A DNA stretch of 49,383 nt, taken from assembly GCA_043822065.1 (NCBI GenBank), contig JBDRCC010000002.1, forward strand, positions 1 to 49,383, read 5' to 3'. The DNA comes from JBDRCC01 sp043822065 [NCBI: archaeon]. GTDB taxonomy: Archaea; Undinarchaeota; CAZHTU01. Within the stretch, counting starts at the first letter, position 1, and each line of letters begins with the position of its first letter. Positions 329-49,383 of the stretch are shown one piece after another. The position numbers and the translations under genes were made by a program. The notes below the pieces were generated by a model. That model saw nothing but the letters and a program-made list of their open reading frames with translations. It ran no database searches and had not been told where the DNA came from.

Positions 329-359
329 CTTGGGAGGAATACGGTTTGCGGGGTTCAAA

Positions 360-6170: not shown

Positions 6171-6962
6171 TCAATGGAGTATAAATTCTTCTTGCTTCCG
6201 GATAGAGCGCACCATCTTCATGAAAGGCTCAGTATCTAGGAGGTTCTCAAGCCCTGAGCCGAGAACGGCTATGTGCGAGACTATGCTCAAAAGGTCGCGC
6301 GCCCGTATTTTGCCTTCGACCCATTCTCCGCCAGTGAGCGGAATCACATATAGGTCGCAGTATTCGACATACGACTCCGGATCGGACGTAAGCTGGACAT
6401 AGTCGAAGCCCTTGATTAGCCTATAGCCCCTATGCCTCCAAAAGCTTATCCTTTCGTGAGCATCCATGGTGTCGCATTTTAATTCCTCGTGGGTCATCTT
6501 TTCCGGGTTGTTTATCTCCCCTATGAGCCCGTCAAAGTTTTCGTAGCCAAGCGTCTTCGCATCCTTCTTGAGCACCTTTATCGCATTCTCAGTTAGCTTT
6601 GTGCCTATCCCATGGCATCGGTATTCCGGCCTGACAACAGTCCACCAGACAGTGCCGAAGCATATGTCCTCGTCACACCCCATAAAGTCGAAGACTACAC
6701 CGCCAACGACGCGCTTCTGGTGCATGGCTACAAGCACGTGAAACCGCTTTTTTGCAGGGGCTTCCTCCTCAAGCGGGTGAAAAACGTTCTTTATTACCTT
6801 GATTTTCTTTTCTGGCTCAGACCGCATCTTGAGGTTCTCTATAAAAAACTCGAGGCTCTCCCGCTCATTTTCGTCCGGGAAGGCCGCCACATACACGCTG
6901 TTGAAGAACTCCGTAAGCAAGTCACTGTCCTCATAAATCTCTTTGTAGGATACGCCTATCAT
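6171..6962 (-). CDS. GNAT-family N-acetyltransferase, substrate unknown
   Basis: 263 residues. The acetyl-CoA binding motif A is seen as VVRPEYRCHGIGTKL (about 110-124), matching the R/Q-x-x-G-x-G/A signature after a beta strand (FGTVWWTVV). Motif B-like sequence continues to FWRHRGYRLIKGF (about 173-185), the usual late strand of GNAT proteins. About 70 residues follow the GNAT core, so the protein is longer than the common 150-180-residue members. The acceptor substrate cannot be read from the sequence. It is divergent from taw3, and each gene has its own TATA-like box in the 75-nt gap. Confidence 0.75.
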   Translation of the reverse strand: MIGVSYKEIYEDSDLLTEFFNSVYVAAFPDENERESLEFFIENLKMRSEPEKKIKVIKNVFHPLEEEAPAKKRFHVLVAMHQKRVVGGVVFDFMGCDEDICFGTVWWTVVRPEYRCHGIGTKLTENAIKVLKKDAKTLGYENFDGLIGEINNPEKMTHEELKCDTMDAHERISFWRHRGYRLIKGFDYVQLTSDPESYVEYCDLYVIPLTGGEWVEGKIRARDLLSIVSHIAVLGSGLENLLDTEPFMKMVRSIRKQEEFILH

Positions 6963-20597: not shown

Positions 20598-20650
20598 CCT
20601 TAGCCCACCAGAGGATAGCTTTAAATAATTTCTTGCGTTTTAGATTACCC

Positions 20651-21547
20651 ATGCGCAAACAGAGGATTGCTTTTTGCACTATAGTCCTGCTTTTAGCGTT
20701 CAGCATGCCTGCCCTTGCCGCCGCGCAGGAGGTCAAGGTCGGCACTTACATACTCAACATAGGCGAGTACGACATCGAGAAGGGCGCCTACAAGGCGGAC
20801 TTCTACCTGTGGTTCAAATGGGACGGGGAGCTGTCACCGGAGGGCTTCGAGCTGATGAACGGGGACAGGTCAAGCTCCACCAAGATAATTGATGAGCCAG
20901 GCTATCTTTTTTACAGGATACGGGCGAACCTGCACGAAAACCCTGACCTGCACCTCTACCCGAAGGACACCCAGAGCCTCACAATAAAGATAGAGGACAG
21001 CATGTACAACTCAAAACAGCTGGTCTACGTGCCGGATTATGAGGAGATTGGAATGAGCGGCGAAGTCGAAATCAGGAACTGGGACATAGTAGACGCAGAA
21101 GCGCGTGTAAAAGAGAACTACTACCCAAACTGGAAGGAGAACTACAGCAGGTACACTTATGAGGTTAGGATGGGCAGGCCGTCGTCTGCCTACTGGAGGA
21201 TTATACTCCCAATACTCTTCGTCGCAATAACCGCGTGGGCATGCTTCCTTTTGCCGGTCCACAAGATTGAGGCAAAGCTGGCGCTTGGGGGGACAGCCCT
21301 TCTGTCTGCGGTGGTCCTGCACATACTGATAATAGAGTCAATACCGCCGATAGGGTACCTCACCCTTGCAGACAGGTACATAATAGCGCTCTACTCGCTC
21401 CTTGTGTTTTCCCTGGTGTCTATGATAATGGTTGAGAGGCACCTCCTCAAGGAGAGGCACAAGGAAGCCGCAAGGGACAACCTGCGGTTTGCGCTCGGGG
21501 CGCTCGCAGTGCCGGCAGTGATGTTTTTCCTCCTCACCCTCTTATAA
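20651..21547 (+). CDS. Pentameric ligand-gated ion channel homologue (Cys-loop superfamily)
   Basis: 298 residues from ATG 20651. A signal peptide (about 1-25, ending ALAAAQ) precedes a beta-rich outer domain. LYPKDTQSLTIKIED (102-116) matches the F-P-x-D-x-Q loop of the superfamily, here without flanking Cys as in bacterial members. Four membrane helices follow: M1 about 182-201 with the conserved Pro, M2 about 206-230 ending in IESIPPIGYLT, M3 about 239-262, M4 about 281-298. The order and loop sequences match pLGICs such as GLIC and ELIC. Ligand and ion selectivity cannot be read. A TATA-like box (CTTTAAATAA, about 20619-20628) fits ATG 20651 better than TTG 20633. The flavin reductase gene overlaps its stop by one base. 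Confidence 0.82.
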   Translation: MRKQRIAFCTIVLLLAFSMPALAAAQEVKVGTYILNIGEYDIEKGAYKADFYLWFKWDGELSPEGFELMNGDRSSSTKIIDEPGYLFYRIRANLHENPDLHLYPKDTQSLTIKIEDSMYNSKQLVYVPDYEEIGMSGEVEIRNWDIVDAEARVKENYYPNWKENYSRYTYEVRMGRPSSAYWRIILPILFVAITAWACFLLPVHKIEAKLALGGTALLSAVVLHILIIESIPPIGYLTLADRYIIALYSLLVFSLVSMIMVERHLLKERHKEAARDNLRFALGALAVPAVMFFLLTLL

Positions 21548-26412: not shown

Positions 26413-27561
26413 TTAGGATGGGCACTTTGAGACTTCGACGCTGGTGTATGCTGTCTTTTTCATGCCGTCGTGGGCAACCTCAACTATTGCCCTTGCCGGA
26501 TAGCCGCAGAGGCTTCTCACGCAGGCAGCATCGTAATAGTCGCGGTAGAACTCTAAGTAGTATGTGTTTTTGCCGGTAGTTTTTGAGCGAAGCAGGTTCC
26601 CGACCTTGCACATCTTGGTCGCGTCGCTCTGGATGTAGACTGTCCTGCCGAACTCCACCTTGAACGGCTCGCCAGCGAAGGAGCCGGCGTAGTTTAGCCC
26701 GCTGTACCTGTCCCCGCCGCTCGACGCGGCCTTGGTGTCAAGGCCCTGGTAGAGGCCGAGCTCGAAGGCATTGTCCAGCTGCATGACGGTCTCGTAGTAG
26801 GTCTTGTAGTCGTATATCATCGGGACCTGCTTTGCAACCGTGTAGTTTATGATACTAAGCTGGAAGTCGTCCTCGCTCTCGAAGGCATGAAGCTTTATCT
26901 TGGAGCAGATTGTCCGCGGCTTGCCGTTTGCAAGGTAGGTCAGCTTGCTTTCAATTGGGAATTCCCCTTCCTCGTTTGGGACTAACCGCCATATAAGATA
27001 GACATAGTCAGAGTCATAGACATCGTCGAGGTCCTTTGGGTCTATGACTTGGGAGGAGGTAATCGCATACTTGCTGCTGCTTTTGAGCTCGGCAGATATA
27101 TGCGTGAGCTTGTCCTTGTAGTTCGTCCGCCTTAGGCTGAGGCGCATCTCAAGGGGGCCGCCGACGTTGTACTCGTCATAGAACTCGCCGTAGTTGTACT
27201 GCTTTAGGTCGTACATGTGGATTTCAAAGCCGAGCTTCTCGAGCTCATTGAGGTTTGTAGGCTCGCACCATGTGCCTAAGTCTGCAGGCGGCTCTTCTGG
27301 CACGTCTGCAGGCGGCTCAGATGATGGCACGTCATCCGGAAGCGCATCGTCGGCAACATTAACATCGGTTCCATCGTCCGGCAGCTGGCTGTCCTGGCCA
27401 GTCGAGGGGGGTGAGGGCTCGTCCCGGTCACATATTGAGTTTGAGTTCTGGTCAAGGCAGCAGTCATAGGCTACCCGGATATACGGTGGACTGCATACTG
27501 GCGAGGATATGCAGCCAGCTACAACTACTACAAAAAGCACTGCAAAAAGCGTTATTTTCAT
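26413..27561 (-). CDS. Lipoprotein with Cys-rich Asp/Asn motif
   Basis: About 382 residues from ATG 27561. A lipoprotein signal peptide ends in VAGC (about 13-16), so the mature protein would be lipid-anchored outside the membrane. Close to the anchor, DCCLDQNSNSICDRDEP resembles a calcium-binding Asp/Asn loop as in dockerin or thrombospondin type 3 repeats. A Pro/Asp/Glu-rich spacer (about 50-95) and a 280-residue beta-rich outer domain with six more Cys follow. Function unknown. A GTG at 27579 could extend the start by 6 codons. A TATA-like box (ATTATATAAA on the minus strand) lies near 27600-27609. Confidence 0.8.
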   Translation of the reverse strand: MKITLFAVLFVVVVAGCISSPVCSPPYIRVAYDCCLDQNSNSICDRDEPSPPSTGQDSQLPDDGTDVNVADDALPDDVPSSEPPADVPEEPPADLGTWCEPTNLNELEKLGFEIHMYDLKQYNYGEFYDEYNVGGPLEMRLSLRRTNYKDKLTHISAELKSSSKYAITSSQVIDPKDLDDVYDSDYVYLIWRLVPNEEGEFPIESKLTYLANGKPRTICSKIKLHAFESEDDFQLSIINYTVAKQVPMIYDYKTYYETVMQLDNAFELGLYQGLDTKAASSGGDRYSGLNYAGSFAGEPFKVEFGRTVYIQSDATKMCKVGNLLRSKTTGKNTYYLEFYRDYYDAACVRSLCGYPARAIVEVAHDGMKKTAYTSVEVSKCPS

Positions 27562-27645
27562 TGATGCACCCCGGAACACCCGAGATATCTGCGGGCAGAT
27601 TTATATAATTTAGCTATGCCAGTTTTTGGACTCCTGGGTGGGCGG

Positions 27646-27850
27646 CTAAAAATGAAAAAGTGCCGCGTTAATGAGAGGGAATGTACTTGCGACCCGAAGG
27701 CCGTTTTCCACTATTAAACGCACCCCGAAGGATGCGAAACCCAACACCCCATGCAAACCCGAAGATTTGTTAAGCTTGGCCGAAGCCAAACCAACGGGAG
27801 TTTTATGGACCAAAACCCGAAAGCCTTGAGCCATATTACCTAACGCGGCT
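27646..27850 (-). ncRNA. Probable structured noncoding RNA with multiple cUUCGg hairpins
   Basis: On the minus strand GCCGCGTTA (27849-27841) pairs perfectly with TAACGCGGC (27670-27662), closing about 170 nt. Inside are four stems capped by TTCG with C-G closing pairs: 27789-27776 (TTGGC/GCCAA), 27769-27754, 27736-27719 (CGCATCC/GGGTGCG) and 27703-27690; G-U pairs are compatible with RNA on this strand. A fifth stem-loop lies at 27819-27795. ACGTATAAAC (27880-27871) places the transcription start right at the closing stem, and two T5 runs (27659-27655, 27652-27648) follow it. A GCCGC at 27646-27642 could compete for the closing stem. I do not recognise RNase P, SRP, 5S or tRNA elements. Reading frames across it look non-coding. 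It fills most of the gap between lipoprotein and eS1. Confidence 0.6.
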
Positions 27851-27870
27851 TTAACACTAAATAGAATATT

Positions 27871-27880
27871 GTTTATACGT
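27871..27880 (-). promoter_or_regulatory. TATA-like box of the structured RNA
   Basis: ACGTATAAAC on the minus strand is centred about 25 nt before 27850, where the 9-bp closing stem of the RNA begins. It lies 60 nt after the eS1 stop, so the RNA can be transcribed apart from the ribosomal operon. Confidence 0.5.
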
Positions 27881-27940
27881 GTTTCGTAGAATTGGCTAAA
27901 AACAGAATTATTTTCAATAGTGAAAAGAATAAAAATGGCC

Positions 27941-28516
27941 CTAAAGGACGTCACAGCGCCGGACTGCAATAATCTTTATGGGGTAGATTTTTGAGGCGCG
28001 CTTTGTTATCTTTGCCTGAATCTTGCCAAAGACTATGTCCTGTATCAGCTGGCCGCCGGAGACCTCTTTCGCAGCCTGCTGCATCTCCTCGTCGATTATC
28101 CTGCTTATCGCCTTCTTCTGCTTTACGTCTATCCGCTTTGAAACTGTCGTAATGACCTTGACCTTCAGCTTCTTGTCGCCGAAAGGGACAGTGGAGAACT
28201 GCATGAACTTGTCGCCCCTGCGCCGTACCATCGAGCGCTCGTAGTCCCGGGTTATCTCATGGCGGACGAAGTCAGTTGAACAGACATCCCCCTTGACTTC
28301 GAGAATCCTGAAAAAGAGCTTGTGCCTCTGCTTCTTGAAGTCGCGCACGTCTCCGCTGAGGTCAGAAAGGGTCGTCTCAATTATCCTGCCGACGAGGAGC
28401 TTCGGGTCAGAAGCGATGGTCTGGCCGATGTACGAGCCGCCAAAGGCATCTGGTGCCTTGACGTCGTACCACTGCTTAAGCTTCCATGGGTCCTTGACGG
28501 TCTTTGCTGTTGCCAT
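27941..28516 (-). CDS. rps3ae: 30S ribosomal protein eS1 (S3Ae)
   Basis: 191 residues, matching archaeal/eukaryotic small-subunit protein eS1, at the platform near the mRNA exit. Recognisable are the start WKLKQWYDVKAPDAFGG, the Arg-rich MVRRRGDKF and the end KRASKIYPIKII. The start is coupled to uS15 by TAATG. The order ITPase, uS15, eS1 resembles archaeal ribosomal operons. A candidate structured RNA follows its stop. Confidence 0.95.
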   Translation of the reverse strand: MATAKTVKDPWKLKQWYDVKAPDAFGGSYIGQTIASDPKLLVGRIIETTLSDLSGDVRDFKKQRHKLFFRILEVKGDVCSTDFVRHEITRDYERSMVRRRGDKFMQFSTVPFGDKKLKVKVITTVSKRIDVKQKKAISRIIDEEMQQAAKEVSGGQLIQDIVFGKIQAKITKRASKIYPIKIIAVRRCDVL

Positions 28517-31585: not shown

Positions 31586-32254
31586 ATGCAGACGATAATC
31601 CACCTGAGGGCAGAGGAAATAGGGCTGTTCGAGCCGGTGCTTTCAAGGTATCCCCAGAAAGAGTTCAAGGAGAGTTTCATAATAAACAGGGTGGAAATCA
31701 GCGAATGCGTGGTAACCCTTTATTCGTCAGGCAAGCTCCTCATACAGGGCGAGGGCTACCTAAAGGTCTACGACATGCTTACCGCCAGCCTCCCGACGCA
31801 GGAAACCGCAGTGGGCATAGATGAGGCGGGGCGCGGGGAAGACTTCGGAAGCTTGGTGGTCGCGGGCGTCTTAGGCGACAGGAACAAGCTGAGGCGTGTT
31901 AGGGACTCAAAGAAGACAGGGGACATAAGCGCAGCCTACCGGATTGTTATGCAAAATGCACTCGATTCGCATGCCGTTGTCGTGCGCTCGGATGAGATTG
32001 ACCGCCTCCGCACCTCCGGAAAGAACATGGACATGATACAGGCAGAGGCAGTGCGGGAGATAATGCTCCGCATAGGCAAGGGGCGCGAAGTATTCATAGA
32101 CGGGAGGGCGGTGAAGGGAATAGACGCCAACTTCCTTGAGAAAGGCGACGACCTCGACCCGCTGATTTCCGCGGCGTCGATAATCGCAAAGTATACGCGC
32201 GATAATTCTGAAAAGGGGAAACGGGAGACCTGGGGCAAAAAGCTTTCCGGCTAG
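31586..32254 (+). CDS. rnhC: RNase HIII-like ribonuclease with N-terminal TBP-like domain
   Basis: 222 residues. The enzyme cuts RNA in RNA-DNA hybrids. GIDEAGRGEDFGSLVVAGV (77-95) matches RNase HIII (GxDExGxGDxFGPLV) more closely than RNase HII. Further acidic residues are D172 (FIDGRAV) and D191 near DPLISAASIIAKYTRD. Residues 1-68 contain VTLYSSGKLLIQG, the strand pattern of the TBP-like N-terminal domain of RNase HIII. The protein is shorter than Bacillus RNase HIII (about 310), mainly near the C-terminus. The stop overlaps that of the next gene in CTAG. Confidence 0.8.
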   Translation: MQTIIHLRAEEIGLFEPVLSRYPQKEFKESFIINRVEISECVVTLYSSGKLLIQGEGYLKVYDMLTASLPTQETAVGIDEAGRGEDFGSLVVAGVLGDRNKLRRVRDSKKTGDISAAYRIVMQNALDSHAVVVRSDEIDRLRTSGKNMDMIQAEAVREIMLRIGKGREVFIDGRAVKGIDANFLEKGDDLDPLISAASIIAKYTRDNSEKGKRETWGKKLSG

Positions 32255-34618: not shown

Positions 34619-35758
34619 TTAAGCAGTCGTGCAGGATTCGAGGGAAGCGCGGACGACGCGTATTGCCTTGTCTACGTCGGCCTCTTCGACGGTATTGCTA
34701 AGCCGCATTCTGGCGGACGCCTTGGACAGGCGGATTATCCCCTCCACAAAGCGGGGGGTTATCTCCACGAAGTACTTCTTCTCGCGCTTTTTTACCTCGT
34801 AGAGGAACTTCTCAATCTGCTCCTCAAACGCAGTGGAGAATGACGGCAGGCAGGACTTTGAGAATTTTATGTAGTCCATTAAAAAGCCGTAATCCTGGTT
34901 CGCTGCGCGCCTGCCCTCGATGACCTTCTTGCTGATTTTCATGAAGTCTTCAACGGAGTACTGGCGCAGGACGAAAACAAGGTGAAATCGGGTCAGCAGG
35001 GCCGGGTCAAATGGTATCTGCTTCCGCATATTTTTTCCAAATTTGTCGCCAATGGGGTTTGCGGCGGCGAGAATGGAGCACCGGGCAGGGAACTGGAAGT
35101 GCGAGCCGCCCTTGTCGTATGAGACATAGCCCTTGCTCATGCTGGAGTAGAGCCCGGCCCGGTCCTGCGGCTTCATCAGGTTCAGCTCGTCGATGCACGC
35201 TATTCCGCCGTTTGCCATTGGCAGGATGCCAGGCATGACCTCCCTTCCCCGCTGGGTTACAGTGAGCCCGGCAGAAGACGTCCCGGAGCCGAGCCCGAAA
35301 GAGGAAATTGGCGAGATCTCTGACGCTGCGTGCAGTATGTCGCTCTTTCCGGTCCCTGGGTCGCCGATTAGCAGTATGTGGAGCTGGTCTGGGCAGAACA
35401 GCTGGAGGGAGACTGCCTCCTTAATTGTGTCAAGGCCGAACAGCTCGGAGGAGAGGATTTTCTGGACGTTGTCCTTGGCAACCGCAGAGAAATTTGAATA
35501 CATCCTTTTGTTTATTTTTGCGTCAAGCCCGGCGTTGTTCAGGTAGAGGAGCTTTTCCCAATCAGAAACGTGCCCGGAATAAGGGTTGCCCTTCTGCATG
35601 ATTTCGCCGCGGAGGGCAAGGAACCGGACAAACTCAGAGTATTCATTTGGAAACCGCGACTTCAGCTTTTCCAGCTTTTCGCGCTCCGCCTTAATGCCGG
35701 AGTAGCCCTTCCGAAGGTGCCTTAGCAGATACAGCGAGGAATAGATTGGCTCAAGCAT
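34619..35758 (-). CDS. MCM-like AAA+ ATPase lacking the MCM N-terminal domain
   Basis: 379 residues. Walker A is GDPGTGKS (132-139), Walker B is CIDELNLM (188-195; standard MCM has IDEFDKM), sensor 1 is AAANPIGDKFG (231-241), and the arginine finger is R257 in LLTRFHLVF. These patterns and the C-terminal helical part match the MCM2-7 family. The roughly 250-residue N-terminal domain of replicative MCM (OB fold, zinc site) is missing; instead about 100 helical residues precede the ATPase. It is therefore probably not the main replicative helicase. No truncation scar is visible, so it looks like an intact derived form. Confidence 0.82.
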   Translation of the reverse strand: MLEPIYSSLYLLRHLRKGYSGIKAEREKLEKLKSRFPNEYSEFVRFLALRGEIMQKGNPYSGHVSDWEKLLYLNNAGLDAKINKRMYSNFSAVAKDNVQKILSSELFGLDTIKEAVSLQLFCPDQLHILLIGDPGTGKSDILHAASEISPISSFGLGSGTSSAGLTVTQRGREVMPGILPMANGGIACIDELNLMKPQDRAGLYSSMSKGYVSYDKGGSHFQFPARCSILAAANPIGDKFGKNMRKQIPFDPALLTRFHLVFVLRQYSVEDFMKISKKVIEGRRAANQDYGFLMDYIKFSKSCLPSFSTAFEEQIEKFLYEVKKREKKYFVEITPRFVEGIIRLSKASARMRLSNTVEEADVDKAIRVVRASLESCTTA

Positions 35759-40179: not shown

Positions 40180-40911
40180 TTATCTCTTCTTGGACTGGAG
40201 CCTTGCGATTTCGCCGTGGACCTTGGCTTTCCGCGCCTCGTGGCTGGTCCGCATGTGCCTGTATTCCTCGTCGCCTATTGTCTTGTGCTTGTAGTACTTC
40301 TCGTCGATTGCTGAGATTAGATTGTCAAGCTCCTTGGATTCCTCAGAGAGTGATTTAAGCCGGAAATTAACGTATTTTCCATGAAGCGGCTTGTAGCTTA
40401 TTATGGCAATGAGCGCCAGAACTGCAAAGAACGCAGTAACCTGCTTCCAGTTTGTCCTCAAAAAGGCAGATAGCCTTGCCCGCACCGGCTGGTGCTGGAT
40501 GGAAACTGCCTCCTGGGCGAGCCGCATCGCCTCGGTGTAATCCGCGCTTGAGAATGCGCGGTCGGCCAGTGCAAGGACAGTATTGGAGTCGGTAACATCA
40601 AGCCCTTTTTTGGAGTCCTCATAAACCTTGTTTTTTGCCTCGTTTATCACGTCAAAAGCCTCGAACGCAGCCTTTTTTGTCGAGCTGACCTGGTTGCAAA
40701 GCTGGACGACCTGGCCGTAGTAGCCGCGGTCATTTGCAGTAAGCGCCTGGAAGTAGGTGTCGTTGACGATTTTTACATTGAAGCCGGCTTTTGACATCAC
40801 GCTTATGTCCTGCCCGGCGGCAGCTATCGCGGCCTGGGCGTCTTCCGCAGTCTGCGCCATGGCAATGGCTGACAGAAGGAGAACCGCTGCAAATGCGTAT
40901 TTTACCCTCAT
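40180..40911 (-). CDS. Small membrane protein paralogous to the giant protein's membrane-proximal part
   Basis: 243 residues. A signal peptide (about 1-19, ending AIAMAQ) precedes a helical outer part (about 22-150), a membrane span (VTAFFAVLALIAIISY, about 167-182) and a basic cytoplasmic coiled coil. The whole aligns by eye with the C-terminal part of the upstream giant protein: DISVMSKAGF versus DILVMQSAGF, then DVINEAK versus SMINEAK, DYTEAMRLAQEA versus DYATAEKLAMET, a span, and EKYYKHKTIGDEEY versus KEYYVEKSLGSREY. It starts with ATGA overlap and should be co-translated. A paired, perhaps hetero-oligomeric role is inferred. Confidence 0.8.
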   Translation of the reverse strand: MRVKYAFAAVLLLSAIAMAQTAEDAQAAIAAAGQDISVMSKAGFNVKIVNDTYFQALTANDRGYYGQVVQLCNQVSSTKKAAFEAFDVINEAKNKVYEDSKKGLDVTDSNTVLALADRAFSSADYTEAMRLAQEAVSIQHQPVRARLSAFLRTNWKQVTAFFAVLALIAIISYKPLHGKYVNFRLKSLSEESKELDNLISAIDEKYYKHKTIGDEEYRHMRTSHEARKAKVHGEIARLQSKKR

Positions 40912-43900
40912 TTCTCGTCCTCGCCTTTGGCGGTGCGCTTTAGGCGGTCGTGCGAATGCCTGTGGCGGGCTATTGCGTCGGAAAGCTCGCCAAGGTGCAC
41001 CTTGGGAAGGTGAATGTGCGTGTCTTTTTTAATGATTTTGGCTGGCGCCGGGCGCTGAACGGGTATCCGCTCGGGCGGAAGGCTCCGGTGGAGGTGATGC
41101 AGCTCCATCCTCCTAACCTTCGGCTCCTTATAAAGCGCAGGGGCTGGCGGCTTGGGCGCCGGAGCCTGCTGGGCTGCGGCATGGCGCCTTGCGAGCTCAA
41201 GCTCTATCTCCCGCTTTGGAGGTGCGGGAGCTGGCGCGGGTGCCTTCGCCGGCAGCAGCCGCTTCTTCAGCGGAATGTACTCCATCTCCGGCTTCTGCGG
41301 CTTTTTCTTCTTCTCCGTGAGGGCTTTCATCGCCCGCTCTGCAGCCTCAATCTCCTTTCTGAGCTTTTCAGCCTCTGCCTCCTTTTTCGCGATTTCGCGG
41401 CGGTTTGCCTCTATGTCCTTCTTGATTTTTCTCTCTGCCTCCTTTTTCTCCTTCAGGGACGCTATCTCCTTCCTTATCCTGTCAATCTCTTTCCTGCCCT
41501 CGGCAACCTTCTTCTGGAGCTTCGAGCGCATTGCCGCCTCTTCCTGCTTGACCGCGCTGGTCTGCTCCTCGTATTTTGTCCTCAGCTCCACGTACTCCCT
41601 GCTGCCGAGGCTCTTCTCCACATAGTACTCCTTGTCGGTCTTGTCTATCAGCTTCTCAAGCTCCTTCTCCTCGCGCTCGAGCGACTTGACGCGGCGGGTT
41701 ATTATCGCAATTGATGTGTGCTTGTATCCGCCGACCACCAGCATCAGGGTGAGCAGGAACACCAGCGAGAACATCCTGCAGTTCGCAAGCACTGTGTCGA
41801 TTATCGTCCTTGACGGCGCCGCAACCATCGCAGAAACCCGGAACTGCATCAGGAGGGTCTCCATGGCAAGCTTCTCTGCGGTGGCATAATCCTCATTCTG
41901 GAAGGCGGCTATCGCCTGGTCCAGCACCTTCTTTGCGAGGGATACGTCGGCGCCGCCAGCCTCGGACTCGGTCAGCCGCGCCTTCGCCTCGTTTATCATG
42001 CTGTTCACCTCAATCGCCTTCTCGCGCCTCTGCTGTATCTCGCCGGCCAGTTCGGCAGCCTTGCCATAGTCGCCTTCTGCAAGCGCGTCAAGCGCCTGCT
42101 GGTAGAGGTCCTCCGCAAGCATGGTTCCGAAGCCTGCGCTCTGCATGACGAGTATGTCCTCGTTTGCAGACTTGATTTCCTCTTCGGCAACGTCTTTTCC
42201 AACCTTAAAGACAACTAGCTGGGTCCTGAAAGTCTGCGATGATTTTTCAGAGGAGACTTTCATCTTTAGCGGGTAGCTGCCTTCGTCAAAGTAGTACGGT
42301 ACTGAGATCTCAATTGTGAAGTAGGCGCTCGCCCCAGACTTGAGTGAGCGGGGCGCAGTTATTGTGCGCACATACTGGGCAACAGAGCCTTCAAAGGACA
42401 CTGAAACTGAGCTGTAGTCTGACGCGCCCGTGTTCCGGACAAGCACGCGCATGGTCTTTTTTACCCCGCGCGTGGCGTCAATTTGGTCTGGCAGATCAGA
42501 AGAGAATGGCCCAGCAGAAACCGCGACCACACCTCCGCCGCCTGCGCCAGGAGAGACGCCGCCACCTGTGTCTATTATAGTCTCCCCGCCGCCAGTGCTT
42601 GGCCTGAATTCAACAGACGAAACCAAGAGCGCACCCCTTCCGACGGAGTTGTTCGCGTATGCAGTGAAATTCCTTGTGCCGAGCGAGGCGCTGCTGCTGA
42701 CATCAACGAGTATCGAGTGGTCGTAGTACTGGTTCGGAAGCAGGCTTCCATATGTCCGGTTTAGGCTGTAGCCGGACACAAGTGACATCCCGCTTGGGAG
42801 GGCCAGGTTTGAGTATGTGGACGCCGATGTCTCGTTGCCGATGTTCCGTATCCTCGCAGTGTAATTGACGTTTGTATCCCCTTGGGTGACTGAGGAGTCA
42901 AAGACTGGGAGGATTATGTCAAGGAACGGACCGCCTGCAAATACCTCAACCGTTGCGTTGGTCTCAAGTATCTGCGGGGTGGCTTCGGCGTCGCTGCTTG
43001 TTATGTTTATCAGTATGGTGTGTGTGCTGGTCACTGTCGGGGCAGTAAGATTGAGCATTAAGTCTTCACCCTCTCCGGCTGCAAGGCTTACGGAGGCAGG
43101 TATCGTTATGCTTGCGAACGCAGGGAACTCGGAATAGGCTATCGTAAAAGTGGCTGCAAAATCGCCAGTGTTGTTTATCGTCAGGTTGCCGAAGTTTATT
43201 GCCTGCGAATAGACCGCGCCGGCAGTGTACATGTTTGCCGGGCTCCGCTCCCAGGTGTGCTCGTACGCAACGTCGAGTGTGGCATTCGCCGTGAAGTTCT
43301 GGTTGCCGCTCGTGTCGTTTGCAAACAGGTAGAACGACCAGTTCCCGGCATAGGACGGCGTGAAGTTAGCATAGTACCTGTTTCCGGAAACGCGAGCGAA
43401 CGAAGCCTCGGACCAAGAGGTCGTGTTCAATTCCCTGTACCTGAGCAGGGTATAGTTAAGCCCGCCGTAGTCGTACATATCAACCAGCACTCCGACGGTG
43501 ACATTCGGGTCAAGCCCTGCCGTCGTGTTCGGCGAGTAGGTCAGGTTCTGGACGACGGGCTGGCTGGTGTCCCGGACTGTGAAATTGTATATGGGTGTGG
43601 TATTCCCATTGCCAAGGGTGTCATTCTTGAAGAATGTAAAGTTGTACCCTCCGAGCACAGACGGGTAGAATGTGTAATTGTACCTGCCCGCGCCTGCCGT
43701 CACCATCGAGCTGTTTGTGCCGTTGACGTAGACAAGGACAGTATCCACAGATGAAACCCCGTCCACCACCGTGGCCCAGATTGTCTGGAGGCTGCCTGCC
43801 TCAAGCGGGTCTGTCGAGGAGACCAAGGAGTGCCGCGGCGGCTCAGTGTCGACGAAGAAGGTGACCGAACTTGAGCCGACGAAGCCTGCGCTGTCGTTTG

Positions 43901-46900
43901 CGTAGACGAGGAGGGTCGTTCTGCCGTCAGGCACTGTGAGGTATTCCTGGTATTGGTACTTGTCATAAACGGCAAACAGCAGGTCGTGCGAGCTGTCGCC
44001 GTATATCTGGCCGCCGGAATAGGTGTCCGAAGACGCCTCCCAAGAGAAGTAGTTGCCAGAATAACCTGGCGTCAGGTACAGCCAGTAGCGGGTGTTGTTC
44101 CCAAGGCTTGCCGTCTGGTTAGGCACGAGCGACAGCCAAGAGAAGCTAGCGGACAGCAGGCTCTGGTTTATTGGAATGCTTGCAAGGACGGTCCCGGACG
44201 GCGCCCCGCTTGAGTCGGTCCGTATCTGCAGGCTTGCGTTCGTGAGCGACCCTCCAGAGAGCTTTAAGCGCACCGTGATGTTGGACACGTTCATTGCGTG
44301 GTCCGTGGTGAAGGACTGCGCCAAGGCAGAGCCCGCATTGTCCAGCTCGGTTGTTCCGGCAGGGGTGTTGTAGACTTTATAGAGGGTGCCTGCAAGCGAG
44401 CTGTTTCCCGTGTAGTTCAGGTCGTAGTAGAGCCATGCCAGGCCGAAGTCCTCGTACATGGTATAATTAAGGGAAATGTTTTGGCTTGTGTAGTACGTGC
44501 CGTTTTGCAGTGAAGTGATTGTAATGTTTGGCACCTGCGAATCAACGCTGAATGAGACCAGCGATGAGCCGCCCATGTTGCCGACAGTGTCGTTTGCGTA
44601 GAGGACTATTGTCCTGGAGCCGTCAGGCACGGTGATTGAGGTGTTCTGGCAGCCGGAAATTGTGATGTTTGCCGCGCCGTTCAGGCTGTACCCGCACCAG
44701 ACTGCGGCTTCTGAAACCGTAAAGTTGAGCGGGATTGCCTGGGAGGAATAAAGCCTTGCCTGCGGCGAGTGGACAGATATCTGCGGCGCAGTAAGGTCAA
44801 CTCTGAAGGTCGTGTTCGCGCTGGCACCCATGTGCCCTCCTGTGTCGTTCACATAAACCACCACCCAATTGGTGCCTTCTGCGACTCCAACGCCCGGGCC
44901 CAATGTTGAGTTCTGGCAGCCGCTTAGGGTGTGGTTGGTAAAATTATTGAGGTTGTACCAGCATTTGTCGAGGTTTGCGTCCACTGCGGTGAAGTTGAGC
45001 CCAACGGAGAGGGACGAATAATTGCCCCCTGCGGCTGGTGACTGCACCGTGACGTTTGGATTCGTAAGGTCCACCTTAAATGTCCTGGTGAGGGACTCAG
45101 AGGATATATCCAGGGTGTTGTTGCAGTAGAACTTGATAGTGTGCGAATTTGGGGTTTCCGCAAGAGCGGAGAGGGTTGAGTAGTAGTTAGTAAAAGTGGC
45201 GCGGGTCATGTTTATGTGGGTGCCATTGCTGTCGTAGATGTAGGTGCAGCTCGAGGTGTTCTGGTCTGTTGAAACGTTTGCGGTTATGGTGTCAGTGATA
45301 TAGGTAATGCTCTCTGGCGTCAGGACCGTAATCGTAGACCCCTTGGTGTTGACGACGAAGTTCTGGACCTCAGAAGAATTCATATTCCCAAGTGTGTCAT
45401 TGCAATGGAATGTGACGTTGTGGTTCTCGTTTTCAAGGCCGGAGATGTTATAGTGCCAGTAGAGCCCGGCGCTGCTCATGGAGATGTTTGTCCCATTCGT
45501 ATCCATTTCATACCCGCACCAGTCTGCTTCCGTGTCCACTGAGATGTTAGCCCAGACAGACCTCACGGGGTAGGTCTGGTCCACAGGGGAGAGTATTGTA
45601 ATGGCAGGCGGGGTGGTGTCAACTGTAAAGTTTATCGCGCCGCTGGTTGCGTTCCCCTGGGTGTCCTGGCATACCACGAGCGCCTGGTAGGTGTTGTCAG
45701 CCAGCCCGGACAGCACGACAGCCTGGTTTGAGTTGTTGGTTACTGTGCCGTTGAACGTGACTGTGCCGCTGACGTTGTACCAGCAGAGGAGCTGGGGCGC
45801 CAAATTGTCATAGACGGTGTAGTTCAGGTAGACGGTTGACGAGGATATGTTTGAGTGGTTTGCCGGGGCAGTTATGTTCACGACCGGGCGGGTGTTGTCT
45901 ATGGTCATGTTCCGGACGGATGAGTTGGACAGTCCAAAGAGGTCTGACGCAGAAATGTTGAGGGCGACAAGCCCGTCCTGCAGAGAGGTCGTGTCCCAAT
46001 TGAAGGTGCATCCGTATCCGCTGGCTATTGCCGAACAGTGCGCCGCCCAGTCAAAGCCGCTGAGCAGGGAAGTCATGTTCGTCAGGTTAAGGGTCGACTG
46101 CACAACACCGCTGCCGGCATCCGTGAAGTTGAAGTACAGCTGGGTGGTGCCGCTGACGTTCTTGTACTGGAGCCCGCTTACCCAGGAGGGGGCGGGAGGT
46201 ATGGTGTCAACCGTGAAGGAAACATTCGAGGAGTTCGCCCTGCTGCCAAGGGTGTCGTTCGCGAAGACCATGGCCCAGTTTGAGCCTTCGCTGGCAGTCA
46301 TTGTTATGTTCTGGCAGGCGGAGAGATTCCGTTCGGTAGCGTTGTTGAGCTGGTACCAGCAGTGCGACAGACCGACGCCGCTGTCGACAACGGTGTAGTT
46401 CAGACTCACGGACGTGCTTGTGAAATTTTGGTTGGCGCCAGGGCGCTGTATGCTTACTGCCGGCGGAGTAGTGTCTATGGTGAACGAGACGTTTACAGAA
46501 GTGTTGACGAAGCCGACTGTGTCATTTGCGTAGAGGGTGAGCCAGTTTCTGCCTTCAATTGTGCCGTTTGAGGGAGTAAGCGTGAAGTTCCCGCAGCCGG
46601 CGAGGGTGTAGTTAGTAAAGCTGTTCAGGTTGTACCAGCAGCTGCCGAGATTTGTGTCGGTTACTGTATAATTGACGGATATCGTGTTTGACGAGTGGTT
46701 GGAATTGTGGGCTGGCGACTCTATAGTGAGGACTGGAGTGAGGGTGTCGACAGTGAATGAGATGTTCTGCGAGCGGTTGAGGTTTCCTGCAGTGTCGTTC
46801 GCGAAGACCATGGCCCAGTTTGAGCCTTCGTCTGCGGTCATTGTTATGTTCTGGCAGGCGGAGAGGTTCCGCTCGGTAGCGTTGTTCAGCTGGTACCAGC

Positions 46901-49383
46901 AGCGGTCAAGCCTGGCGTCATACACGGTGTAGTTTAGGCTGACACCGGACGACGCATAGAACGCCGCGTTGGTGGGGTTCTGGACAGTGAGGGCTGGAAC
47001 GCCGGTGTCGACCGTGAAGGAGATGTTTGCGGAGCTGTTCAGGTTGCCAGCCGGGTCCAGTATGTGCAGTACAAGCCAGTTGGCGCCCTCGGCAATCCCC
47101 TCACCTGTCCCAAGAGTAATGTTGGCGCATCCTGGAACCGTGGTGTTCGTAAACCCGTTGAGCTGGTAGAAGCAGCCAGCCAGCCCGGTGCCGCTGTCGT
47201 ATGCGGTGTAGTTCAGGTATATTGAGGCGCTGGAGTAGTTCTTCCCGTAAGCCGGCCCGTATACCGTGAGCTCGGGCTTTATTGTGTCTATCGTGTAGCT
47301 GATGTTTGCCGACTGGTTGACCCAGCCTGCGCTGTCGTTTGCGTATACTATTACCCAGTTGGCGCCCTCCTGGGTGCCGTTTAGCGACGTTAGCGTCACG
47401 TTGCCGCACCCAGGCATGCCATAGCTAATCTGGCTGTTTGCGTTGTACCAGCAGGTGTCGAGGTTCGCGTCGGATACTGTGTAATTAAGGCTGATGCTGA
47501 GCGAGGAATAATTCACATTCAGGGCAGGGCTCTGTATTGTGAGCTCCGGCCGGAGGGTGTCCACAAGGAAGTAGGCAGTAAGGGATGAGTTTGAGTTGCC
47601 CGCAATGTCAGTCGCATACGCAGTCATGTTGTTCCAGCCGTCGGAGGGGGAGATTGTTGCGGTGAAATTGTACCTGTCGTATACCCTGAACAGCAGGTCT
47701 CGCGAGCTGTCGCCGGAATACTGGCCGCCGGAGTAGAGGTCGCTGCTGTCGTCCCACCTGTAGAAGCCGGATGCCGTGCCGTTTTCCATTGTCAGCCAGT
47801 ATGCCGTGCCTGCGGTGAGATGGACTGTTGAGTTCAGCGTCAGGTTAACCCATGGGTATCCTGCCCCAGGCACCGCGCCCGAGTCTATCATAGCATATGC
47901 AAGGACTGTGCCAGAAACCTGCCCGGCGGAGTCCGCCCGTATCTGCAGCTGGGTGTCTGCCGGGGCCCCGCTCTTGACTATCGGGATGGCGATGCGGTAG
48001 ACGTATAGGTCTTCAGCAGGCGTGAAGGACTGGTTGAGCTGCTTGTCCAAGCAGTTGATGTCGCTGGTCTGCGAGGTCTCATGCACTGCCTTCAGCCGGT
48101 TTGAGTCTCCAAGGGCAACGGCGGGGCCGCCGTTCAGGTCGTAGCTGACCGAGCCAAGCAGGGACGCGTCAACCACTGTAAGGTTCAGGCTTAAGGGCGC
48201 AGAAGTGATGATGGAGGCGTTCTGCGGGTGGCTTATGCTGAGTGCCGGCGCGGTTGTGTCTATTGTGAAGGTCGTGTTTACGCTCTGCCCTTCGTTGCCG
48301 ACGGTGTCGTTTGCATAGACGACAAGCCAGTTCAGGCCCTCCTGCGTGCCGTTGCCCTGCGCAACCGTAAAGTTGCTGCAGCCGCCTATCAGGTAGCCGG
48401 TCTCGTTGTTGAGCCTGAACCAGCAGTTCTCCACTTCAGTCAGGGCGTCGGATGCTGTAAAGTTGACGCCTATTGTGGGGCTGGGGATTGTGCTGTTCCC
48501 TACTGGCTGCTGTATGGTAACCACTGGGGTGGTGGTGTCTACTGTAAACAGCGATGTATTTGAGTGCCCCGTCTGCCCAAGCTGGTCGGCACAGGAGGCA
48601 TTCCAGTAGTAATGCGAGTCGGACAGCCCAGTGAGGTTGAAACCAGTTACGGCGCCGCCCGCAACGGTATCATTCGTCTGGTTGAGCACGCCGTTCAGGT
48701 ATATGGAGCAGTTCAGGATGGAGTCCACGGCGTCGACCGCAGTTACGTTCAGGACGAGTGAGGTCTCAGTAGTGTTGAGGCTATACGGCGAATGCTCGAG
48801 GGATACGTTCGGCGGGAGCGAGTTGACTGTAAAGCGCCAAGTGCCTGAAACGCCGATGTTTGAGGATGAGTCGTTGCAGGTCACGTTCCAGTAGTGCGCC
48901 CCTTCCGGGATCCCGGACGCCAGGTAAGCCGTGTTCGTGTTGTTCAGGACTGTGCTGTTGGAGTAGTACAGCAGGCTGTCGATGTACAGGGAGCAGTTGA
49001 GCTGGGTGTCGTAGTTGTCGGTGTAGTTGAAGGTCAGGTTTAGGCTTGAAAGGGTCGAGTTGTAGTAGTCGGCTGGCGCTGCGAGCGAGACGACGGGCGC
49101 AGTGGTGTCGTTTATCTGGAACCAGCCAGTGGCGGTGCTGTTCTCATGGCCGAGGGTGTCGTTCGCGAAGATTGTTATGTTGTACCTGCCGACCGCTGAT
49201 GTGGAGGTGAACGAGCTGTTGTAGGTTGCTGCAGTCCCATTTCTCACAAGTGCCAGGAACTCCGAGCCGGCAGGCCATGTGATGTTTGCCCGGACGGAGG
49301 ACACTGCGAGCCCGTCGGTCACGTTTGCATAGACCATGACTGGCGAGCCGAGGGCGTAGTGGACGCCCTGCGGGAGGGCGCCG
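40908..49383 (-). CDS. Giant surface protein: Ig-like repeats, membrane span, cytoplasmic coiled coil (5' end outside window)
   Basis: At least 2,824 residues; the frame stays open to the window edge, so the ATG at 49335-49337 need not be the start. About 43,400-49,383 encodes some 18 Ig-like units of about 85-100 residues (opening DTTPP-type, closing ANDTxGN...FTVDT) that are dense in N-x-S/T sequons and often contain a CWYxLN...GCxN Cys pair. Two units carry an inserted beta domain. Two further beta domains, a Gly-rich linker (about 42,500-42,600) and a helical outer part lead to one membrane span (about 41,714-41,780). Inside follow a long coiled coil (about 41,320-41,700), a Pro/Ala segment and a His-rich tail. 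The layout fits a receptor or adhesin linked to the cell interior. Confidence 0.88.
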   Translation of the reverse strand, partial: GALPQGVHYALGSPVMVYANVTDGLAVSSVRANITWPAGSEFLALVRNGTAATYNSSFTSTSAVGRYNITIFANDTLGHENSTATGWFQINDTTAPVVSLAAPADYYNSTLSSLNLTFNYTDNYDTQLNCSLYIDSLLYYSNSTVLNNTNTAYLASGIPEGAHYWNVTCNDSSSNIGVSGTWRFTVNSLPPNVSLEHSPYSLNTTETSLVLNVTAVDAVDSILNCSIYLNGVLNQTNDTVAGGAVTGFNLTGLSDSHYYWNASCADQLGQTGHSNTSLFTVDTTTPVVTIQQPVGNSTIPSPTIGVNFTASDALTEVENCWFRLNNETGYLIGGCSNFTVAQGNGTQEGLNWLVVYANDTVGNEGQSVNTTFTIDTTAPALSISHPQNASIITSAPLSLNLTVVDASLLGSVSYDLNGGPAVALGDSNRLKAVHETSQTSDINCLDKQLNQSFTPAEDLYVYRIAIPIVKSGAPADTQLQIRADSAGQVSGTVLAYAMIDSGAVPGAGYPWVNLTLNSTVHLTAGTAYWLTMENGTASGFYRWDDSSDLYSGGQYSGDSSRDLLFRVYDRYNFTATISPSDGWNNMTAYATDIAGNSNSSLTAYFLVDTLRPELTIQSPALNVNYSSLSISLNYTVSDANLDTCWYNANSQISYGMPGCGNVTLTSLNGTQEGANWVIVYANDSAGWVNQSANISYTIDTIKPELTVYGPAYGKNYSSASIYLNYTAYDSGTGLAGCFYQLNGFTNTTVPGCANITLGTGEGIAEGANWLVLHILDPAGNLNSSANISFTVDTGVPALTVQNPTNAAFYASSGVSLNYTVYDARLDRCWYQLNNATERNLSACQNITMTADEGSNWAMVFANDTAGNLNRSQNISFTVDTLTPVLTIESPAHNSNHSSNTISVNYTVTDTNLGSCWYNLNSFTNYTLAGCGNFTLTPSNGTIEGRNWLTLYANDTVGFVNTSVNVSFTIDTTPPAVSIQRPGANQNFTSTSVSLNYTVVDSGVGLSHCWYQLNNATERNLSACQNITMTASEGSNWAMVFANDTLGSRANSSNVSFTVDTIPPAPSWVSGLQYKNVSGTTQLYFNFTDAGSGVVQSTLNLTNMTSLLSGFDWAAHCSAIASGYGCTFNWDTTSLQDGLVALNISASDLFGLSNSSVRNMTIDNTRPVVNITAPANHSNISSSTVYLNYTVYDNLAPQLLCWYNVSGTVTFNGTVTNNSNQAVVLSGLADNTYQALVVCQDTQGNATSGAINFTVDTTPPAITILSPVDQTYPVRSVWANISVDTEADWCGYEMDTNGTNISMSSAGLYWHYNISGLENENHNVTFHCNDTLGNMNSSEVQNFVVNTKGSTITVLTPESITYITDTITANVSTDQNTSSCTYIYDSNGTHINMTRATFTNYYSTLSALAETPNSHTIKFYCNNTLDISSESLTRTFKVDLTNPNVTVQSPAAGGNYSSLSVGLNFTAVDANLDKCWYNLNNFTNHTLSGCQNSTLGPGVGVAEGTNWVVVYVNDTGGHMGASANTTFRVDLTAPQISVHSPQARLYSSQAIPLNFTVSEAAVWCGYSLNGAANITISGCQNTSITVPDGSRTIVLYANDTVGNMGGSSLVSFSVDSQVPNITITSLQNGTYYTSQNISLNYTMYEDFGLAWLYYDLNYTGNSSLAGTLYKVYNTPAGTTELDNAGSALAQSFTTDHAMNVSNITVRLKLSGGSLTNASLQIRTDSSGAPSGTVLASIPINQSLLSASFSWLSLVPNQTASLGNNTRYWLYLTPGYSGNYFSWEASSDTYSGGQIYGDSSHDLLFAVYDKYQYQEYLTVPDGRTTLLVYANDSAGFVGSSSVTFFVDTEPPRHSLVSSTDPLEAGSLQTIWATVVDGVSSVDTVLVYVNGTNSSMVTAGAGRYNYTFYPSVLGGYNFTFFKNDTLGNGNTTPIYNFTVRDTSQPVVQNLTYSPNTTAGLDPNVTVGVLVDMYDYGGLNYTLLRYRELNTTSWSEASFARVSGNRYYANFTPSYAGNWSFYLFANDTSGNQNFTANATLDVAYEHTWERSPANMYTAGAVYSQAINFGNLTINNTGDFAATFTIAYSEFPAFASITIPASVSLAAGEGEDLMLNLTAPTVTSTHTILINITSSDAEATPQILETNATVEVFAGGPFLDIILPVFDSSVTQGDTNVNYTARIRNIGNETSASTYSNLALPSGMSLVSGYSLNRTYGSLLPNQYYDHSILVDVSSSASLGTRNFTAYANNSVGRGALLVSSVEFRPSTGGGETIIDTGGGVSPGAGGGGVVAVSAGPFSSDLPDQIDATRGVKKTMRVLVRNTGASDYSSVSVSFEGSVAQYVRTITAPRSLKSGASAYFTIEISVPYYFDEGSYPLKMKVSSEKSSQTFRTQLVVFKVGKDVAEEEIKSANEDILVMQSAGFGTMLAEDLYQQALDALAEGDYGKAAELAGEIQQRREKAIEVNSMINEAKARLTESEAGGADVSLAKKVLDQAIAAFQNEDYATAEKLAMETLLMQFRVSAMVAAPSRTIIDTVLANCRMFSLVFLLTLMLVVGGYKHTSIAIITRRVKSLEREEKELEKLIDKTDKEYYVEKSLGSREYVELRTKYEEQTSAVKQEEAAMRSKLQKKVAEGRKEIDRIRKEIASLKEKKEAERKIKKDIEANRREIAKKEAEAEKLRKEIEAAERAMKALTEKKKKPQKPEMEYIPLKKRLLPAKAPAPAPAPPKREIELELARRHAAAQQAPAPKPPAPALYKEPKVRRMELHHLHRSLPPERIPVQRPAPAKIIKKDTHIHLPKVHLGELSDAIARHRHSHDRLKRTAKGEDEK
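46254..46903 (-). repeat. Recently duplicated segment within the Ig-like repeats
   Basis: The stretches 46254-46363 and 46794-46903 are nearly identical at the DNA level, offset by exactly 540 bp (180 codons, about two repeat units). They encode QLNNATERNLSACQNITMT and EGSNWAMVFANDT in both. Other units differ widely, so this pair was recently copied or homogenised by gene conversion. Confidence 0.75.

What the first reader, a model, noticed from the sequence alone, without database searches (positions are those of the whole stretch)
27646..27850. Self-contained structured RNA with four cUUCGg hairpins and a perfect closing stem
Seen: TATA-like box, then at the expected start site the 5' strand of a 9-bp closing stem, four UUCG-capped hairpins with C-G closing pairs on the minus strand only, a fifth stem, the 3' strand of the closing stem, and two T5 runs. 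G-U pairs fit the minus strand. Known: cUUCGg tetraloops are extra stable and common in functional RNAs. I do not recognise a known family. A GCCGC at 27642-27646 could compete for the closing stem, which might act as a switch or terminator control.
Basis: partly seen in the sequence, partly recalled or inferred. Interest (0 to 1): 0.85.

Follow-up and report, generated by a model that had tools for sequence, protein, structure and literature searches.

The report
Orphan archaeal RNA with five UUCG hairpins
A short stretch beside a ribosomal-protein gene of an uncultured archaeon very probably makes a compact, stable non-coding RNA whose five hairpins all carry the same extra-stable loop; it matches no RNA family we could search and its job is unknown.

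Summary
On the minus strand, 27662-27849 is a 188-nt element closed by a perfect 9-bp stem. It carries five UUCG-capped hairpins, not four: the "fifth stem" ends in UUCG too, with a U-G closing pair. Only two other UUCG hairpins of 5 bp or more occur in the window; 0 of 5000 shuffles of the element reach five (maximum 2). Ten of 53 pairs are G-U, pointing to the minus strand as the RNA. TATAAA starts 28 nt before the stem and two T5 runs follow it. Codon usage argues against a gene on either strand. The host is an unnamed archaeon; sampled Undinarchaeota are among its nearest relatives, none close. Rfam gives no match. A single-sequence covariance model over 469 sampled genomes gave three weak matches near 16 bits, taken as chance; a three-UUCG pattern in 394 gave nothing similar among the fetched loci. 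So there are no homologues and no covariation test. Best reading: a free-standing, lineage-restricted structured ncRNA, probably an RNP scaffold. The "switch" is weak: the competing GCCGC matters only in read-through transcripts; the stem is about 100% formed when the transcript ends at the T-runs. Function is inferred.

The parts
27872..27886 (-). BRE-like CGAAAC (27886-27881) and TATA-like TATAAA (27877-27872); predicted start about 27849
   Evidence: sequence and spacing; BRE/TATA consensus and spacing recalled
27662..27849 (-). structured RNA, 188 nt
   Evidence: fold and UUCG-hairpin statistics; codon usage unlike window genes
27841..27849 (-). P1, 5' strand of the 9-bp closing stem
27662..27670 (-). 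P1, 3' strand of the 9-bp closing stem
27804..27835 (-). P2: 5 bp plus 8 bp hairpin, UUCG loop 27821-27818 closed by U-G
27773..27792 (-). P3: 8-bp hairpin, c(UUCG)g loop 27784-27781
27754..27769 (-). P4: 6-bp hairpin, c(UUCG)g loop 27763-27760
27748..27798 (-). weaker helix (27798-27794 with 27752-27748) enclosing P3 and P4
   Evidence: pair probability 0.55-0.74
27719..27736 (-). P5: 7-bp hairpin, c(UUCG)g loop 27729-27726
27690..27703 (-). P6: 5-bp hairpin, c(UUCG)g loop 27698-27695
27648..27659 (-). two T5 runs, archaeal-type terminator
   Evidence: terminator role inferred
27642..27646 (-). GCCGC, possible competitor for the 3' strand of P1 in read-through transcripts
27941..28516 (-). 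upstream neighbour eS1 (Ribosomal_S3Ae), followed by a T-rich run at 27935-27922
   Evidence: sequence
26413..27561 (-). downstream neighbour, lipoprotein-like by eye (signal and lipobox), with its own TATA-like box at 27608-27600
   Evidence: ORF; no Pfam hit; TATA-like matches; start codon chosen by eye

Best explanation
27662-27849 (minus) is the gene of a free-standing, trans-acting structured RNA of about 190-200 nt. It is transcribed from its own archaeal promoter just after the eS1 operon ends and stops at the T-runs before the next gene. The 9-bp closing stem ties the ends together and should protect them. Five UUCG-capped hairpins hang from one multibranched loop and make a rigid, nuclease-resistant body. 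Most likely it works as the scaffold of a ribonucleoprotein, with the joining strands (GGUAA, UUUAAUAGUGGAAAA, CAAGUACAUUCCCUCUCAU) as contact sites. Shown here: the structure signal, the strand, sequence boundaries and lack of coding signal. Inferred: transcription, stability, protein binding and the scaffold role.
For: Five UUCG hairpins of 5 bp or more in 188 nt, against two elsewhere in the window and a maximum of 2 in 5000 shuffles. Perfect 9-bp closing stem at probability near 1 and fold z -3.2 to -3.7. Minus-strand G-U pairs and a weaker plus-strand fold, -47.3 against -70.3 kcal/mol. TATAAA starting 28 nt before and T5 runs just after the stem. The upstream gene ends in its own T-rich run (sequence) and the downstream gene has its own TATA-like box, so the element looks stand-alone. 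Mean codon score -0.46 (open minus frame) and -0.34 (a 52-codon plus-strand ORF), against 0.41 with sd 0.15-0.17 for window genes. No Rfam family.
Against: A single sequence: no convincing homologue in 469 sampled genomes, so no covariation and no proof of conservation. The intergenic stretch after eS1 in two sampled Undinarchaeota (L052, L128) shows nothing like it by eye, nor with the model. With flanks included the fold z is only -1.4. TATAAA and T5 runs are common in the window (25 TATAAA, 158 T5 runs on both strands). No expression data. Nothing ties it to a protein.
Confidence: 0.55

Rival explanations
1. Protein-titrating decoy: five near-identical UUCG hairpins are repeated docking sites that soak up one RNA-binding protein, as CsrB-type RNAs do with their repeated GGA loops (that comparison is recalled).
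For: Modularity: the same loop five times, with UUCGGGU in three of the five hairpins (sequence) and an 11-nt near-repeat (91%) between P2 and P6.
Against: UUCG loops are usually structural caps rather than protein sites (recalled). No UUCG-binding regulator is known to me in archaea, and none was looked for here.
Confidence: 0.15
2. Cis-regulatory leader of the downstream lipoprotein-like gene: closing stem plus T-runs act as a terminator, and GCCGC as an anti-terminator, in an attenuator or riboswitch.
For: Same strand as the downstream gene. T5 runs follow the stem. GCCGC pairs with its 3' strand at 7% in a transcript ending at 27630, is used in the minimum-energy fold of the one ending at 27620 (stem 0.55), and at 90% in the 27900-27600 transcript.
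Against: The downstream gene has its own TATA-like box at 27608-27600, placed for a start near its first codon (placement by eye). P1 stays at 0.91-0.93 when the leader to 27600 or 27562 is folded from 27849. No known riboswitch model matches.
Confidence: 0.12
3. A strongly diverged housekeeping RNA of this lineage (RNase P RNA, SRP RNA or a guide RNA).
For: Size, closed ends, own promoter and position between genes are what such RNAs have. The window shows no Rfam hit at all. A GGAAA (recalled as part of RNase P region CR-I) is present in a joining strand at position 141.
Against: No match with E up to 10 to any RNase P, SRP or archaeal guide model. No ACAGAA or C/D-box motif; a single GA dinucleotide in 188 nt (9.8 expected), so no tandem G-A pairs for a kink-turn; the four GNRA matches lie outside the predicted hairpin loops. 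Archaeal RNase P RNA is over its curated cut-off in 10 of 13 sampled genomes (12 of 13 at E up to 0.001, a looser level at which bacterial controls also ring). SRP RNA in those genomes was not searched.
Confidence: 0.08
4. Not a functional RNA: a chance or decaying palindrome-rich intergenic stretch, or a DNA-level element.
For: No convincing homologue; z only -1.4 with flanks.
Against: UUCG hairpin clustering far beyond chance. G-U pairs would be A-C mismatches on the other DNA strand. UUCG stabilises RNA, while TTCG is not particularly stabilising for DNA (statement read in PMC2864571).
Confidence: 0.05

Closest known systems
STAXI motif (Weinberg et al. 2010, PMC2864571; passages and its STAXI section read)
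   Same: Tandem small structures often capped by UUCG tetraloops, thought to act as RNA.
   Different: STAXI repeats are pseudoknots frequently found near DNA-handling genes. Here there are plain predicted hairpins inside one closing stem, beside ribosomal-protein genes, and the Rfam search lists no such match with E up to 10 (that STAXI is in Rfam is recalled).
CsrB/RsmZ-type protein-titrating RNAs (recalled)
   Same: Many short hairpins with one repeated loop sequence in one RNA.
   Different: Loop is UUCG, not GGA; archaeal host; a closing stem joins the ends; no protein partner known; no Rfam match.
Archaeal RNase P RNA and SRP RNA (RNase P: RF00373; SRP features recalled)
   Same: Free-standing RNA with paired ends.
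   Different: No family match; no kink-turn-capable GA pairs; ACAGAA absent; only 188 nt.
Pyrococcus abyssi intergenic ncRNAs (PMC3124441; abstract and outline seen)
   Same: Archaeal ncRNAs transcribed from intergenic regions.
   Different: The abstract reports CRISPR and 5'UTR-derived families, several with similarity to transposase elements, and kink-turns in three of twelve.

Membership tests
Any Rfam 15 family | covariance-model score at or above gathering | tested here: not met
   0 matches in the window; best in the region 16.1 bits against a cut-off of 70, a Tetrahymena snoRNA model
Archaeal RNase P RNA (RF00373) | model match | tested here: not met
   no match with E up to 10; the model is over cut-off in 10 of 13 sampled archaeal genomes
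Archaeal RNase P RNA (RF00373) | CR-V ACAGAA-type sequence and a kink-turn for L7Ae (recalled) | tested here: not met
   ACAGAA absent; one GA dinucleotide in 188 nt; GGAAA present at 141
Archaeal SRP RNA | model match; helix 8 GGAA/GGAG loop (recalled) | tested here: not met
   no match with E up to 10; the only GGAA is in a joining strand, not a hairpin loop
C/D box guide RNA | RUGAUGA and CUGA boxes | tested here: not met
   neither present; no UGA at all
H/ACA guide RNA | kink-turn, pseudouridylation pocket and 3' ACA | tested here: inconclusive
   ACA at positions 80 and 166 but no kink-turn-capable sequence; pocket not modelled
STAXI motif | repeated pseudoknot with UUCG loops | tested here: inconclusive
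   no such Rfam match with E up to 10; pseudoknots were not modelled
tRNA / tmRNA | ARAGORN call | tested here: not met
   0 genes in the window
Protein-coding gene | codon usage like window genes | tested here: not met
   six frames of 27646-27852 and the plus ORF 27671-27829
Conserved ncRNA family | covariation among homologues | not testable with these tools
   no homologue found

The most novel reading that the evidence does not exclude
The founding member of a new class of archaeal RNA: a closed multibranched body whose every hairpin ends in UUCG and which avoids the GA dinucleotide, and so kink-turns. It would be an L7Ae-independent structural RNP core of a deep archaeal lineage.
Probability: 0.25. 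Interest if true: 0.75.

Novelty: new variant of a known kind. Interest (0 to 1): 0.5.

Why it matters
Small-genome archaea are thought to keep few non-coding RNAs (recalled). A compact, clearly bounded RNA with five identical extra-stable loops and no kink-turn is unlike the guide, RNase P and SRP RNAs expected there, and it could be made and tested for protein partners at once. If it proves to be only local it still adds an RNA family; if it is widespread in its lineage it points to an RNP not yet described.

Tried and rejected
Homologue search by protein neighbour: two scans of genome contigs with eS1. The first confirmed none of 25 stretches. The second, with a 5-row alignment, kept the 80 best of 137, best eS1 identity 44%, none close. 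eS1 matched in 288 of 297 genomes sampled around Naiadarchaeum, best listed identity 44%, and in 82 of 87 of the phylum of G143. The DRG-type GTPase was run over the 297 and over 29 of the phylum of G136; a Bud32-like kinase over 6. Best DRG match is G002, 57% and 453 bits; the next is 426 bits and several others have 55-56% identity. Best Bud32 is 52% (G002). No close relative.

Homologue search by RNA: a covariance model from the single sequence finds the window copy at 242 bits among 71 held sources; L001-L101 apart from L052 were not given to it. Distinct genomes searched with it: 469, taking the 394 to be those. Weak matches: L324 (15.9 bits, inside a 404-aa ORF), L325 (15.7 bits, between ORFs, at the edge of another hairpin array), L332 (16.1 bits, an alignment through A/U runs, overlapping the end of an ORF; no tRNA called), and among held loci L108 (14.5 bits, not followed) and L179 (6.7 bits). 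Against my reading: plain blastn of the RNA against L325 alone gives 37 nt at 78%, E 0.001 for that one 1.9-kb contig. I take all as chance given the number of genomes. I could not measure how diverged a homologue the model would still find, and searches of more than 40 genomes used stricter filters, so the negative is limited.

The three-UUCG pattern matched in 67 of 394 genomes; the tool's reversed-pattern control also matched in many genomes (not totalled). Stems were tested only in fetched loci: among 320 loci and the window, only the window and L210 have three or more UUCG stems within 170 nt; most matches were not fetched. blastn against plasmids and phages: none. Viral contigs with eS1 (8 stretches) and S15 (30 stretches): none confirmed; an exact 37-mer: 0. 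blastn of the RNA against the loci then held: best E 0.82.

Rejected readings: integron attC site (one end does not fit the recalled consensus; by eye only); peptide ORFs on both strands. The sigma-70 and simple terminator scans are not suited to archaea and found nothing. Literature searches were of one open-access library; I saw listings only, apart from PMC2864571 and PMC3124441, and no listed title or abstract start described an archaeal RNA of this build.

Full report
What was checked. The region was read on both strands. The structured part is 188 nt, 27849 down to 27662 on the minus strand. It opens and ends with the two strands of a perfect 9-bp stem. Inside are five hairpins whose loops are all UUCG.

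Is it more than chance? The bare 6-mer CTTCGG is not enriched in the window (41 matches, 34.7 expected). UUCG inside a stem of at least 5 bp is: five in this element, two elsewhere in 49 kb on both strands, and a maximum of two in 5000 dinucleotide shuffles of the element. Ten of the 53 pairs are G-U on the minus strand, and the plus strand folds less well (-47.3 against -70.3 kcal/mol). Strand and structure are settled as far as one sequence allows.

Gene-like boundaries. Upstream, the eS1 gene stops at 27941 and a T-rich run follows (27935-27922, sequence). Then come CGAAAC and TATAAA (27886-27872), the latter starting 28 nt before the stem, the spacing expected of an archaeal promoter (recalled). 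Downstream, two T5 runs follow the stem, and the next gene, lipoprotein-like by eye, has its own TATA-like box at 27608-27600. TATAAA occurs 11 times and T5 runs 60 times on the minus strand of the window, so their presence at the right places is supportive but not proof. The stretch does not look coding: mean codon score -0.46 in the open minus frame and -0.34 in the 52-codon plus ORF at 27671-27829, against 0.41 for window genes; no 52-codon piece of a window gene scored below -0.25.

The proposed switch. GCCGC at 27646-27642 can pair with the 3' strand of the closing stem. If the transcript ends at the T-runs the stem is formed at probability about 1; for ends at 27630, 27620, 27600 and 27562 it is 0.92, 0.55, 0.93 and 0.91. 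Only a transcript starting upstream at 27900 and running to 27600 prefers the competitor (stem 0.09). A switch is possible but not favoured.

Whose RNA? Neighbours are eS1, archaeal-type S15, Ham1, a RIO/kinase-domain protein that I read as Bud32, and RNase HII, so I take the host as an archaeon. No whole genome is held for the window. Among 297 sampled genomes the best match of its DRG-type GTPase (my reading of the MMR_HSR1, MMR_HSR1_Xtn and TGS domains) is G002, 57% and 453 bits, a genome of the same phylum as Candidatus Naiadarchaeum limnaeum (Undinarchaeota). G002 also shares the DRG, TrmJ and DUF1512 neighbourhood. Undinarchaeota loci share the order Bud32, Ham1, S15, eS1, but so do several other sampled archaea. 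Identities of about 40-57% are not close, several other genomes reach 55-56% for DRG, and G468 in another phylum reaches 55%. I take the host as a deep lineage near these groups, not as a proven member.

Relatives of the RNA. None found. A model made from the one sequence was run over 469 distinct genomes (6 and 19, all within the 394; 75 more). Three matches of about 16 bits came back and are taken as chance; one of them, L325, also gives a short blastn match, E 0.001 against that contig alone. A pattern of three spaced CTTCGG was run over 394 genomes and matched in 67; none of the 30 fetched loci forms three UUCG stems within 170 nt. Rfam 15 gives nothing. Because the nearest genomes are distant and the model rests on one sequence, this shows only that the RNA is not widespread in an easily recognised form.

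What it is not. No RNase P, SRP or archaeal guide-RNA match; no C or D box; no UGA; a single GA dinucleotide in 188 nt, so no tandem G-A pairs for a kink-turn; the four GNRA matches lie outside hairpin loops. One GGAAA, recalled as part of RNase P region CR-I, does occur in a joining strand. Archaeal RNase P RNA is over its curated cut-off in 10 of 13 sampled genomes (at E up to 0.001 it is 12 of 13, but bacterial controls ring at that level too), which makes a disguised RNase P RNA unlikely. SRP RNA in those genomes was not searched.

How it most likely works. The build (own promoter, tied ends, rigid extra-stable hairpins radiating from one loop, single-stranded joins) fits a stable trans-acting RNA that serves as the core of a ribonucleoprotein. 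That last step is inference. A decoy RNA with five repeated docking sites is the main alternative, then a leader element of the downstream gene. The closest printed comparison found is the STAXI motif, whose UUCG-capped repeats are pseudoknots near DNA-handling genes (PMC2864571, section read).

Verdict. A very probably real and unusual structured RNA with strong single-sequence evidence, no known family, and no functional evidence.

Noticed in passing
L325 (genome G245) 270-640 and 1230-1600: A contig in a genome of the same phylum as G136 carries an extremely hairpin-rich stretch (MFE -153.8 kcal/mol for 371 nt, z -11.4) and a second array (inverted repeats of 10-14 nt with loops of 2-5 nt). 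No Rfam match with E up to 1. Beside them lie two short ORFs that are paralogues (53% over 47 aa); secreted-type is by eye.
   Followed up: partly
window 27662-27849: The RNA has one GA dinucleotide where 9.8 are expected from base composition, and no UGA.
   Followed up: no
window 31586-32254: RNase HII with a match below cut-off to DUF3378 at its N-terminus, a domain I recall from RNase HIII.
   Followed up: no
window 330-3317: PurL with an apparent PurS-like part at its N-terminus (residues 13-66, 21.7 bits, cut-off 75) and an unassigned stretch between the two.
   Followed up: no
window 34619-35758: A short protein (379 aa) whose Pfam matches are the MCM P-loop and lid domains and related AAA models.
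   Followed up: no
window 20633-21547: A distant ligand-gated ion channel homologue in an archaeal contig (74.8 bits, below the curated cut-off).
   Followed up: no
L128 about 6560-6640: Downstream of eS1 in the sampled genome G006 lies a stretch that reads by eye like a C/D box guide RNA; Rfam at gathering score listed only a tRNA in L128.
   Followed up: no
window 40908-49337: One open reading frame of 2809 aa fills the end of the window.
   Followed up: no
L210, near 3288 on the minus strand: An IMG/VR contig with three UUCG hairpins (5, 11 and 16 bp) within 170 nt, the only other such cluster among the 320 loci held.
   Followed up: no
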